64,000 bases of DNA from assembly GCA_019638675.1 (NCBI GenBank), contig JAHBTE010000001.1, positions 1,644,605-1,708,604 on the forward strand, in the 5' to 3' direction. This document shows positions 42,039 to 45,318 of this stretch, in pieces. This stretch comes from Fimbriimonadaceae bacterium. Its GTDB lineage: Bacteria > Armatimonadota > Fimbriimonadia > Fimbriimonadales > Fimbriimonadaceae. Position 1 is the first letter of the stretch. Every line of letters begins with the position of its first letter. A program made the position numbers and the translations under genes. The notes below the pieces were generated by a model. The model was not told the DNA's origin. It did not search any database and saw nothing but the letters and a program-made list of their open reading frames with translations.

Positions 42039-42509
42039 ATGAAGGGTCTTAACACTTGCTTGTGGCTCGAAAGTAATGCCGAAGAGGCAATGAACACATA
42101 TCTGGAAATATTCCCTGACGCGAACTTCGTTGACAAGACTCTGGGTTCGGTAAATATGCATTTGCCGGAGGGCGCATTCCTGGCCGGAGTGATAGAAATC
42201 GCAGGACATGAAATCATGTTGCTCAATGGTGGGCCGCACTACAAGCTTACGCCAGCTGCTTCGATCACGATTAAATGCGAAAACCAAGAAGAAATTGACT
42301 ACTATTGGTCGAAGTTAGGTGAAGGCGGGCAAGAAATGGCTTGCGGCTGGTTGGAAGATCGGTTTGGGGTCTCTTGGCAGATTGTTCCGGCCAATGTGAG
42401 CGAGTATCTGAAAGATTCAGACCAAGAGCGGTTGGGTCGTTACTGGGCGGCTCTGATGGATATGGTTAAGATCGACATGGCAGCGCTTGAGAAAGCTCGG
42501 AAGGGGTAG
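42039..42509 (+). CDS. PhnB-like VOC-fold protein
   Basis: The 156-residue product is of the PhnB / 3-demethylubiquinone-methyltransferase-like VOC group: TCLWLESNAEEAMNTYLEIFPDA near the start, EIAGHEIMLLNGGPHYKLTPAASITIKC, and EMACGWLEDRFGVSWQIVP. These are metal-dependent-fold proteins without a settled reaction. It follows the DUF899 gene by 80 bp on the same strand and may share its transcript. Confidence 0.8.
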   Translation: MKGLNTCLWLESNAEEAMNTYLEIFPDANFVDKTLGSVNMHLPEGAFLAGVIEIAGHEIMLLNGGPHYKLTPAASITIKCENQEEIDYYWSKLGEGGQEMACGWLEDRFGVSWQIVPANVSEYLKDSDQERLGRYWAALMDMVKIDMAALEKARKG

Positions 42510-42523
42510 GAGTCATTAAATTG

Positions 42524-42563
42524 GCATTTAGCTGTTGCTATTCCTAAGGCAACAGCTAAATGC
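42524..42563. promoter_or_regulatory. Perfect 15-bp inverted repeat between VOC and KAP genes
   Basis: Arms GCATTTAGCTGTTGC and GCAACAGCTAAATGC are perfectly complementary around a 10-nt loop. No T-run follows, so it could be a terminator of the VOC transcript needing Rho, or an operator for the KAP-LRR pair starting 22 bp later. Confidence 0.6.
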
Positions 42564-42585
42564 TATCTCGTGCTAATATTTCCAA

Positions 42586-43752
42586 ATGAAACCGATCTAT
42601 CTTTTGCAGGATAATGCCAGAGAACTGCTAGATGAAGATCATTTGGGAGTTAAACCGTGGGCCGATGTTATTGCGGGGTCGGCAATTGGTAATGATGGTC
42701 CTTTCACTATCGGAGTCTATAAAGAGTGGGGTTTTGGGAAAACAACGCTCCTCCGCCTGGCCAAGAAGACCGTAGAAGGGCACAGCAAGGCTACTAATAA
42801 ACCTATTGTTACTGTTTGGTTCAATGCTTGGCAATATGAAAGAGAACAAAATCCGTTATTCTCGCTCATCGCTGCAATTACGGATGCTATCGAACAAAAA
42901 ACAAAAGGCGATAGCCTTAAGAGAACTGGGAAATTGAGGAAAATTGGCCTCAGCTTAAGGGCTCTAACTAGGGGTATGAAATTTAAAGGTGAGGTTGGAT
43001 TACCATTAGTTGGAAAAGTCGGAGTCGAGTTTGATGCGGAAAAAGCTCTTACCGCTGAAGCACTCATTGGGCAAGAGAATAATCCTCTACAGTCGGAGTT
43101 ACTTTACCACAGCGCATTTGGAATGTTGGAAGAGGCGACACGCGACGATGAAAAAGTAAAAATTGTAGTATTTGTTGATGACCTTGATCGATGTAATCCC
43201 AAAAAGGCTGTGCGCCTGTTAGAGTGCATTAAGTTAGTTTTAGCTCAGCCTGGCTTTATCTTCGTACTTGCCGTTGATAATCAGGTAATAGAAACGTATT
43301 TAGATAAAATATATGTTGAAAGATATGGCTTTGCTGACAAAGGCAGAGGAAAGATGTACCTCGAGAAAATTGTTCAACTGCCGCTAGAAGTTCCAGCACA
43401 TGAAAAGAGATTTGATTTATATGTCGCAAGAATAATCGCTGAGCTTTCCAGAAAATATCGTGCCAATGACGGCAAAATTAAGGCACTGCAGACCGTTCAA
43501 AAGGTTCTAGCTGCACACGTACAGCATAATCCCAGGCGACTCATACGATTGATTGACAACTTCATTATTGATACGTTCTTGTGGGAAGGAACTTCCGAAC
43601 AAAGAAATAATTACAAAAAGCTAAATGATGAAATTGCTCTCGGGCTAGCTGTTCACAGAGTAATCATTAATGCGCTTGGAGACGAATTGACGCTAGCTCT
43701 GATTGAGGATGAGAAATTAAGAACTAGCATAGCTGACGGAACATTTGGGTAA
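42586..43752 (+). CDS. KAP-family P-loop NTPase
   Basis: The 388-residue product has the KAP NTPase layout: GVYKEWGFGKTTLL (Walker A, about 43-56), PIVTVWFNAWQYEREQNPLFSLI (the W-F-N-A-W-Q block specific to KAP), VVFVDDLDRCNPKKAVRLLECIK (Walker B, about 193-215), FVLAVDNQVI (sensor) and HNPRRLIRLIDNF. The usual first Gly of GEWGSGKT is Lys, which may weaken nucleotide binding. There are no clear membrane helices, unlike many KAP proteins. The LRR gene starts 3 bp after its stop, so the two are an operon. Confidence 0.85.
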   Translation: MKPIYLLQDNARELLDEDHLGVKPWADVIAGSAIGNDGPFTIGVYKEWGFGKTTLLRLAKKTVEGHSKATNKPIVTVWFNAWQYEREQNPLFSLIAAITDAIEQKTKGDSLKRTGKLRKIGLSLRALTRGMKFKGEVGLPLVGKVGVEFDAEKALTAEALIGQENNPLQSELLYHSAFGMLEEATRDDEKVKIVVFVDDLDRCNPKKAVRLLECIKLVLAQPGFIFVLAVDNQVIETYLDKIYVERYGFADKGRGKMYLEKIVQLPLEVPAHEKRFDLYVARIIAELSRKYRANDGKIKALQTVQKVLAAHVQHNPRRLIRLIDNFIIDTFLWEGTSEQRNNYKKLNDEIALGLAVHRVIINALGDELTLALIEDEKLRTSIADGTFG

Positions 43753-43755
43753 ATA

Positions 43756-44679
43756 ATGGCAAGTGACAAAGGAACTGTAAGATCTGTTGGTGATCCAGGT
43801 ATTGAAGAATATCCGAGAGGAGGAGATGATTCCGTTCGCGACAGATTACTTGCGCGCCTAAGAGCGGACTCCGAACTCGTATCGTTATTGCGCGAATCCG
43901 CCCAGAGTCTCCTGATACCTGATCCCCAGAAAGGAGATTTGTGGGAGGCGGTTAGGCATTTCATGGTCACTTCACGTGCTGAAGACGAAGGAGTTGTACT
44001 TCCACCTAGAATGGAGGAGATGTTGAGAATAGAGAACTCTTGGGATAAAGGCATGCCGATCCGCAGAAGCGATCTTGCGGCAGTTGAATACCTTAATTGT
44101 TCGGAACTTGCAACTGATACGTGGCTATCCTATCTCAAGTATTTCCCTCGATTATTAGATCTGGATGTTAGTTGGTCGAAAGTATCTGGAAAAGCACTAA
44201 AATATCTTGCGTACGTACCGAATTTAAGAAGTTTAGAACTTTCTGGTCTCGCTATCTCGGATGAGCAATTAATAAACTTAAAATACTGTCAGTTTCTAGA
44301 ACATCTTGGTTTACATAATTGTAATGTAAGTGATTCGGGCATGAAGTACGTTGGCAACTTGTCGAAATTGCAAAATTTAAATTTATCGTATACAAGCATC
44401 ACAGATAATGGCGTATTTGCTCTGCCCGACTTGAAAGCGTTGGAGGGTTTATTTTTGGAAAATACCAAAATCACGGATAATGCTTTGAGATTTATCTCAG
44501 GCTTTGCGTCGTTGAGAATATTAGATTTGGACAGAACTGTTATATCCGATGAATGTTTGAAGGAAATGATTAAATTAAAGAATCTCGTTCTTGTGTGGAT
44601 TAAAGAAACAAGAATTACGGAGGGAGGTGTAACTTTTATCCAGAATGCGCTACCTCAGTGTGAAGTTAAGTTTTCATAA
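43756..44679 (+). CDS. Leucine-rich-repeat protein coupled to KAP NTPase
   Basis: The 307-residue product has about 105 non-repeat residues, helical and charged, followed by at least seven leucine-rich repeats of about 24 residues (LRSLELSGLAISDEQLINLK, LEHLGLHNCNVSDSGMKYVG, LQNLNLSYTSITDNGVFALP and so on). It ends LPQCEVKFS, a typical end cap. LRRs bind protein partners. With its start 3 bp after the KAP NTPase stop, the pair resembles a two-gene version of NLR-type sensors (NTPase plus LRR). A role in defence is inferred from that arrangement only. Confidence 0.8.
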   Translation: MASDKGTVRSVGDPGIEEYPRGGDDSVRDRLLARLRADSELVSLLRESAQSLLIPDPQKGDLWEAVRHFMVTSRAEDEGVVLPPRMEEMLRIENSWDKGMPIRRSDLAAVEYLNCSELATDTWLSYLKYFPRLLDLDVSWSKVSGKALKYLAYVPNLRSLELSGLAISDEQLINLKYCQFLEHLGLHNCNVSDSGMKYVGNLSKLQNLNLSYTSITDNGVFALPDLKALEGLFLENTKITDNALRFISGFASLRILDLDRTVISDECLKEMIKLKNLVLVWIKETRITEGGVTFIQNALPQCEVKFS

Positions 44680-45318
44680 ATATGATGGCTAAATTGATTA
44701 CGTAATTGAAATGGCGAAATATCATAGGGTATAGATGTACATGTGAATTATCCTGTAAGGAGCAAGGGTGATTTAAGTAGTATGCTTGATTAAGATGGGC
44801 GCCGGGGAATTGGTCAGGAATGTCCAATTCGACAATATTTTCGTAGTTGTGGATTGCGAGTTCTTTTCGCTTCGCCGTTGACTGAATGCAACGCTTCGAA
44901 GTCAGAGTCGTTGGCGGGACGGTTGAAACCCAGGTCAAAGACCCTTGGGCGGGACTGTGGGGAACCCCGCCGAAGCGATTACTAAGCTTCCGCTACATTC
45001 GTTCATCAATTCCAAGACCCTGTCCTTCACCATTTTGTTGAACCTATGATTGAACTTGCCGGGTGGGAAGTTCCGCATTGATCCGTTTCAGTATCGTAGT
45101 TATGGAACAGATGGTCGGAATTGGAGGCGATGCCGAATTTTCCGGTTCCAGGATTCGCTCGGTTAACGATATACGTGATGAGTTTATGATCCATATCGTA
45201 AACACCAACATCGGATTTACCTTTCACTCCGAGAATATGCGTGCTGACCATTGACTGGTATTGATAGCAAAAAATACCCACTAGAAATATCCAGAGGGTT
45301 ATTGGGCTTGCTTTAGAA
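44680..45318. other. 640 bp of unassigned or decayed sequence
   Basis: On the minus strand a 112-codon frame (45027-45365) runs into the PEP-CTERM gene. Its part from about 45240 down is protein-like (VGVYDMDHKLITYIVNRANPG) but matches no family I know. Another frame lies at 44666-44938. I read this as decayed or non-coding sequence. No RNA gene or terminator is recognised. Confidence 0.35.

What the first reader, a model, noticed from the sequence alone, without database searches (positions are those of the whole stretch)
42524..44679. KAP NTPase and leucine-rich-repeat protein as a split NLR-like pair
The genes are 3 bp apart. One supplies a KAP P-loop NTPase without membrane helices, the other seven LRRs behind a 105-residue charged helical part. 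NTPase plus LRR in one chain is the plan of NLR immune sensors; a two-gene version would be interesting. The Walker A has KEWGFGKT, without the usual first Gly. A perfect 15-bp inverted repeat lies 22 bp before the first start.
Basis: partly seen in the sequence, partly recalled or inferred. Interest (0 to 1): 0.65.

Follow-up and report, generated by a model that had tools for sequence, protein, structure and literature searches.

The report
Split bacterial NTPase–LRR receptor pair
Two adjacent bacterial genes together make what related bacteria make as one protein: an ATP-driven KAP switch followed by a leucine-rich-repeat sensor, a layout like that of the NLR immune receptors of animals and plants, and most likely used against phages.

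Summary
Window 42586-43752 encodes a soluble KAP NTPase (388 aa); 43756-44679 encodes a 307-aa protein with a helical N-terminal part and about seven 24-residue LRRs. Homology searches show the pairing is real. Ten related KAP proteins carry LRRs in the same chain (Armatimonadota, Planctomycetota, Hydrogenedentota and others), and two other loci have the two-gene form with different stop/start junctions. In a 43-protein tree the split pairs lie inside the KAP-LRR clade, so the two-gene form is a derived split of a one-chain receptor. In the window the genes share a reading frame and are parted by one TAA. The helical N-terminus of the LRR protein corresponds to the linker of the fused chains; the break falls in a predicted disordered stretch. 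The pair lies on about 2.5 kb of low-GC DNA that the sister species lacks at this site. The NTPase is not NACHT or NB-ARC; its model is closest to RdrA, the ring ATPase of RADAR. So it is NLR-like by plan, not an NLR by descent. The defence role, LRR ligand, complex formation and effector are inferred. The 15-bp inverted repeat looks like the upstream operon's terminator hairpin.

The parts
42524..42563 (+). Perfect 15-bp inverted repeat, 10-nt loop; terminator-like hairpin just after the upstream 3-dmu-9_3-mt gene (stop at 42509), probably not part of the pair
   Evidence: sister species G003 has a different perfect 23-bp hairpin at the same place and no KAP gene there
42586..43752 (+). KAP-family P-loop NTPase, 388 aa, soluble
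   Evidence: Pfam PF07693 E 2.4e-36; AF2 model pLDDT 81, pTM 0.79
42721..42744 (+). Walker A KEWGFGKT
42826..43158 (+). Insert between strand 2 and the Walker B strand (about residues 81-191; low-confidence core 135-167); same topological place as the RdrA crown insertion; no membrane helix
43162..43194 (+). Walker B IVVFVDDLDRC
43528..43548 (+). NPRRLIR motif in the lid (P316, R317, R321 invariant in 11 aligned kin), possible sensor-2 site
   Evidence: role inferred
43750..43758 (+). Junction TAA ATA ATG: one in-frame stop between the two genes
43756..44070 (+). Helical N-terminal part of the LRR protein (about 105 aa), corresponding to the KAP-to-LRR linker of fused relatives
   Evidence: BLASTP to the N-terminus of the L025 LRR protein E 1e-11; linker HMM of fused chains hits the L025 and L010 LRR proteins at 2.8e-5 and 1.3e-5, but not the window protein directly
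43756..44679 (+). LRR protein, 307 aa
44089..44676 (+). LRR solenoid, 24-residue repeats (seven canonical)
   Evidence: AF2 strands every 24 residues; Z 23.9 to internalin C2
42510..44984 (.). DNA absent from the syntenic site of the sister species G003; pair GC 41.3% against window mean 48.8%; probably acquired (boundaries approximate)

Best explanation
This is a two-gene form of a bacterial KAP-LRR receptor. Shown here: relatives make KAP NTPase, helical linker and LRR solenoid as one chain; in this lineage the chain is split at the linker into an NTPase gene and a linker-LRR gene lying back to back on recently acquired DNA. Inferred: the two proteins are translated together and form a complex through the helical domain. 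The LRR solenoid binds a ligand, most likely a phage component or a sign of infection. Binding lets the KAP subunit exchange nucleotide and close into a heptamer-like ring, as reported for the KAP protein QatA and for RdrA. The ring then drives a growth-stopping or phage-blocking output. The least certain step is the output: neither gene has an effector domain, so the ring itself, perhaps through the insert that sits where RdrA has its effector-docking crown, must act directly or recruit a partner encoded elsewhere.
For: One-chain KAP-LRR homologues L011, L013, L020, L021/L069, L028, L029, L030/L070, L038 and L067, L068. Two further split pairs, L025 (ATGA overlap) and L010 (TAA-C-GTG), whose LRR gene is in another frame, so the split form is not an assembly error. 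Tree: window+L025 100/98, inside a 13-member clade (98/99) with 8 fused, 3 split, 2 other. Linker homology. The break lies in a predicted disordered stretch, residues 394-414 of the joined model. Selection: KAP codon-position identity to L025 0.74/0.84/0.28, LRR gene 0.43/0.58/0.28, so both are constrained and the sensor changes faster (70% against 33% amino-acid identity, different repeat number). Recent acquisition. Related KAPs carry other C-terminal modules in the same place: FGE, TPR, pentapeptide, HEAT; DGR-diversified CLec/FGE domains on STAND and KAP NTPases are proposed antigen sensors (PMC10907252). Best PADLOC profiles are PifA, PDC-S20 and QatA. A fused copy lies near phage terminase and endolysin genes (L106). 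KAP model: best solved matches are RdrA heptamers (Foldseek E 6e-7; VIA Z 17.5, rmsd 5.5, 340 aligned); QatA is hepta- or octameric (PMC13279940). Joined model: top PDB hits NLRP3, NOD2, NLRC4.
Against: No phage assay, interaction or ATPase data. No effector domain. No defence gene was recognised beside the window pair. The Foldseek match to NLRs is one of domain order only (TM about 0.25), and NLRs are the main P-loop-plus-LRR proteins in the PDB. Grouping the L010 pair with the window pair has weak support (58/50). The linker HMM does not find the window LRR protein directly (E 0.73). Predicted relative placement of the domains is unsure (pTM 0.57).
Confidence: 0.6

Rival explanations
1. A decaying one-chain KAP-LRR gene: a nonsense mutation (or sequence error) put a TAA in frame, and the LRR part is now a leftover reading frame.
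For: In the window the two parts are in one frame with a single TAA between them.
Against: Two other loci are split with the LRR gene in another frame and with close stop/start junctions. Comparison with the nearest split relative shows constraint on both genes. An ATG stands two codons after the stop, and no other stop interrupts either part.
Confidence: 0.08
2. Stop-codon readthrough makes some fused KAP-LRR protein from the two frames.
For: Same frame, single TAA, and fused relatives exist.
Against: L025 and L010 cannot do this, because their genes are in different frames. No readthrough signal is known to me here, and none was searched for.
Confidence: 0.05
3. The pair is a signalling or stress switch not concerned with phages, for instance regulation of DNA or membrane processes.
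For: No defence neighbour recognised in the window; the KAP model is also close to ORC/Cdc6 and TnsC; the functions of most KAP proteins are untested.
Against: Patchy presence (8 of 291 phylum genomes have KAP-LRR), acquired DNA, a fused copy near prophage genes, fast change of the LRR gene, and kin among defence profiles.
Confidence: 0.2
4. The LRR protein is not a sensor but an inhibitor or cofactor that keeps the KAP ring off (toxin-antitoxin-like pair).
For: Adjacent, probably coupled genes; LRRs of eukaryotic NLRs can autoinhibit (general knowledge).
Against: In relatives the LRR is part of the same chain and is replaced by other binding modules, which fits a sensor better. A sensor can also inhibit, so this overlaps with the favoured reading.
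Confidence: 0.07

Closest known systems
Bacterial NACHT proteins with LRRs (bona fide bacterial NLRs, cited in PMC12169576)
   Same: P-loop NTPase and LRRs in one open reading frame; defence setting
   Different: NTPase here is KAP, not NACHT; no N-terminal effector; two genes
KAP or STAND NTPases with C-terminal CLec/FGE sensors diversified by DGRs (PMC10907252)
   Same: Related KAP domains here carry FGE at the place of the LRR
   Different: LRR in place of CLec; DGRs were not looked for; split into two genes
QatA of QatABCD (PMC13279940)
   Same: KAP NTPase of a phage defence system, purified as a hepta- or octamer
   Different: Window KAP scores 103 against the QatA cut-off of 600; C-terminus unrelated; no QatB, C or D here
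RdrA of RADAR (PMC9994260)
   Same: Closest solved fold to the KAP model, Z 17.5; insert at the same place as the effector-docking crown
   Different: About 13% identity, no sequence-profile hit, large helical C-terminus, partner RdrB; no LRR
PifA and PDC-S20 type KAP proteins (PADLOC)
   Same: KAP NTPase profiles match
   Different: Models covered only in their N-terminal half; no membrane segments here; LRR partner
MalT, a STAND regulator with NOD, arm and sensor (PMC4381067, abstract)
   Same: A domain (arm) between NTPase and sensor, as the linker here
   Different: Transcription factor, different NTPase family, one chain

Membership tests
KAP family P-loop NTPase | Pfam KAP_NTPase above cut-off, Walker A, Walker B with DDLDR | tested here: met
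   126 bits against 20; motifs invariant in 11 kin
Membrane-spanning KAP proteins | Transmembrane segments inserted in the NTPase domain | tested here: not met
   Highest 19-residue hydropathy in the insert 0.71
NLR (STAND NTPase plus LRR) | NACHT or NB-ARC (STAND) nucleotide-binding domain | tested here: not met
   Only KAP_NTPase hits at E up to 1; fold comparison gives RdrA and ORC/Cdc6 first, tomato NRC3 at Z 12.5
NLR (STAND NTPase plus LRR) | LRR solenoid C-terminal to the NTPase and a helical region | tested here: met
   LRR and helical part shown, but on a second gene in the window; in one chain in ten relatives
NLR (STAND NTPase plus LRR) | N-terminal effector or adaptor domain | tested here: not met
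   KAP fold begins by residue 23; no other Pfam domain in either protein
NLR (STAND NTPase plus LRR) | Ligand-triggered oligomerisation | not testable with these tools
   Inferred from QatA and RdrA rings
KAP-LRR group defined here | KAP in the 13-member clade, linker domain, LRR, fused or adjacent | tested here: met
QatABCD | QatA above the NCBIfam cut-off and QatB, C, D next to it | tested here: not met
   103 bits against 600; near neighbours are TetR, DUF899 and 3-dmu-9_3-mt
RADAR | RdrA sequence family with RdrB deaminase | tested here: not met
   No RdrA profile hit at E up to 1; next genes are the LRR gene and, upstream, 3-dmu-9_3-mt, not a deaminase
PDC-S20 candidate system | Full-length match to the 446-464-position model | tested here: inconclusive
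   Matches only the N-terminal half, positions 16-241 of 464

The most novel reading that the evidence does not exclude
A true two-subunit NLR analogue: the KAP ring ATPase and its LRR sensor are separate, coupled gene products, so the sensor gene can change or be exchanged on its own while the switch stays the same. It arose by splitting a bacterial KAP-LRR receptor that itself reached the NTPase-plus-LRR plan independently of NACHT and NB-ARC NLRs.
Probability: 0.35. Interest if true: 0.75.

Novelty: new variant of a known kind. Interest (0 to 1): 0.55.

Why it matters
Known NLR-like bacterial receptors use NACHT or other STAND ATPases. A KAP-LRR group shows the switch-plus-LRR plan on a different ATPase, and its split members are natural two-part versions in which sensor and switch can be tested, swapped and titrated apart. 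That makes it possible to ask directly whether NLR-type activation needs a covalent link between sensor and NTPase. In the open literature searched here no KAP-LRR protein was found described; subscription papers were not covered.

Tried and rejected
Viral contigs: no relative of the KAP protein. PDB sequence search with the KAP profile: none at E up to 0.01, so only fold comparison gives a neighbour. Reading the inverted repeat as an operator or attenuator of the pair: set aside, because the sister species has a different perfect hairpin at the same place after the same gene, without a KAP gene, and two kin KAP genes have none upstream. Missing first Gly of Walker A as a sign of a dead ATPase: rejected. 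Membrane KAP: rejected for the window protein; L020 has a hydrophobic insert (1.91) that could be one. Joined model in VIA-align 2: the list was filled by LRR-only chains, so it says nothing on the whole arrangement. A paper on the KAP family looked up by DOI is not held. The search with the linker HMM against the window LRR protein alone failed; homology goes through L025.

Full report
Check of the observation. The two ORFs, their 3-bp spacing, the KAP and LRR domains, the unusual Walker A and the perfect 15-bp inverted repeat are all in the sequence.

Host. L070, from a genome of the same phylum as the window, gives the same protein as L030, titled Armatimonadetes, so the window is from Armatimonadota; the genome has 2.85 Mb.

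Relatives. Searches with the KAP protein in its family (85 genomes), phylum (291 genomes) and the species-level genome collection gave KAP genes whose frames were read. Ten have KAP and LRR in one chain: L011, L013, L020, L069 (L021 is a shorter read of it), L028, L029, L030 (the same gene as L070), L038, L067 and L068; Pfam agrees for those scanned. Two more have KAP followed at once by an LRR gene: L025 (70% KAP identity, Planctomycetota; ATGA overlap) and L010 (TAA-C-GTG), both with the LRR gene in another frame. Related KAPs have other modules in that place: FGE-sulfatase fold, TPR, pentapeptide, HEAT-like (the last two read by eye from the sequence). In the phylum, 8 of 291 genomes carry KAP-LRR, so it is rare and patchy.

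History. In a tree of 43 KAP domains, window and L025 are sisters (100/98), grouped with fused L067/L068 and split L010 (90/95), inside a 13-member clade (98/99) with 8 fused, 3 split and 2 other. The outgroups are one-chain proteins too. The simplest reading is one or two splits of a one-chain receptor. The best two LRR hits in 60 relatives of the window genome are also parts of KAP-LRR chains.

Where it broke. An alignment of joined split pairs with fused chains puts the stop between the last KAP helix and a small helical domain before the LRRs. An HMM of that linker from eight fused chains finds the N-termini of the L010 and L025 LRR proteins (E 1.3e-5 and 2.8e-5; best of 381 controls 0.22) but not the window's (0.73); the window N-terminus matches that of L025 (E 1e-11). 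In the model of the read-through protein the residues after the break (394-414) have very low confidence, as for a disordered stretch, while KAP and LRR are confident. The split leaves both folded parts whole.

Selection. Against L025, KAP amino-acid identity is 70% with third codon positions near chance (0.74/0.84/0.28), and the LRR gene 33% (0.43/0.58/0.28), with fewer repeats in L025. Both are under constraint, the LRR gene less. That is what one expects of a fixed switch and a changing sensor, though repeat turnover alone also lowers identity.

Site. The sister species G003 (86% DNA identity over the upstream genes) has the same upstream genes, then 84 bp, then a convergent gene of which the window keeps a 271-bp remnant (44985-45255). 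The pair is absent there. Its GC is 41.3%, second lowest of 248 windows. G003 has its own fused KAP-LRR elsewhere (L011). The hairpin is at the same place in G003 with another sequence (23 bp, perfect), so it is read as a terminator of the upstream genes. If so, the pair needs its own promoter in or just after the hairpin; TAATAT at 42574 would fit a near-leaderless start, which is a guess.

Fold. Joined model: Foldseek's first hits are NLRP3, NOD2 and NLRC4, over both domains, with TM near 0.25. This confirms the order NTPase-helices-LRR and no more. KAP alone: RdrA of RADAR first, over the whole length (Z 17.5, rmsd 5.5, 340 aligned), then ORC/Cdc6, TnsC; tomato NRC3 at 12.5. RdrA is a heptameric ring whose insertion after strands 2 and 3 forms the crown that docks its effector RdrB (PMC9994260); the KAP insert, residues 81-191, lies at the matching place (by comparison of strand order). 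QatA, a KAP protein, is hepta- or octameric and binds DNA (PMC13279940).

Function. Shown: composition, conservation, the split, acquisition, fold class. From the literature: a KAP protein takes part in phage defence (QatA), and C-terminal CLec domains on related NTPases are proposed antigen sensors (PMC10907252). Inferred: complex, ligand sensing by the LRR, ring closure, defence. Unknown: the effector. Supporting context: one fused copy lies near terminase and endolysin genes (L106), another between SIR2, DUF4365, a HerA-like protein and Mre11/Rad50-like genes (L103). No defence gene was recognised by the window pair itself.

Against what is known. It works like an NLR in plan, but is not a member: the NTPase is not NACHT or NB-ARC and there is no effector domain. 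Bacterial NACHT-LRR proteins are known (PMC12169576), so the idea of bacterial NLRs is not new. New here, as far as the papers searched go, are the KAP-LRR group and its recurrent two-gene form.

Noticed in passing
L103:2810-14087: In G241 the fused KAP-LRR gene sits in one directional run with SIR2, DUF4365, a HerA-like ATPase, a Mre11-like phosphoesterase and a Rad50/SbcC-like ATPase: a possible defence or repair island.
   Followed up: partly
L106:1477-9713: In G067 a fused KAP-LRR gene with a hydrophobic KAP insert lies 3-6 kb from terminase large subunit and endolysin genes, so it may be prophage cargo.
   Followed up: partly
L100:7441-7490 and window 42524-42563: Perfect hairpins of unrelated sequence (23 bp and 15 bp, no T-run) stand at the same place after the same gene in two sister species: a terminator-like element kept in place while its sequence is replaced.
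   Followed up: partly
window 44985-45255: Remnant (71% identity) of the 3' end of a 492-aa gene that is intact in G003, just after the acquired DNA.
   Followed up: no
L046-L064: A large, mainly Chloroflexota group of KAP NTPases with a C-terminal FGE-sulfatase domain, the fold that DGRs diversify elsewhere; whether DGRs lie near was not checked.
   Followed up: no
L026:4968-6740: A KAP protein of the same clade with an MgtE_N-like domain in place of the LRRs.
   Followed up: no
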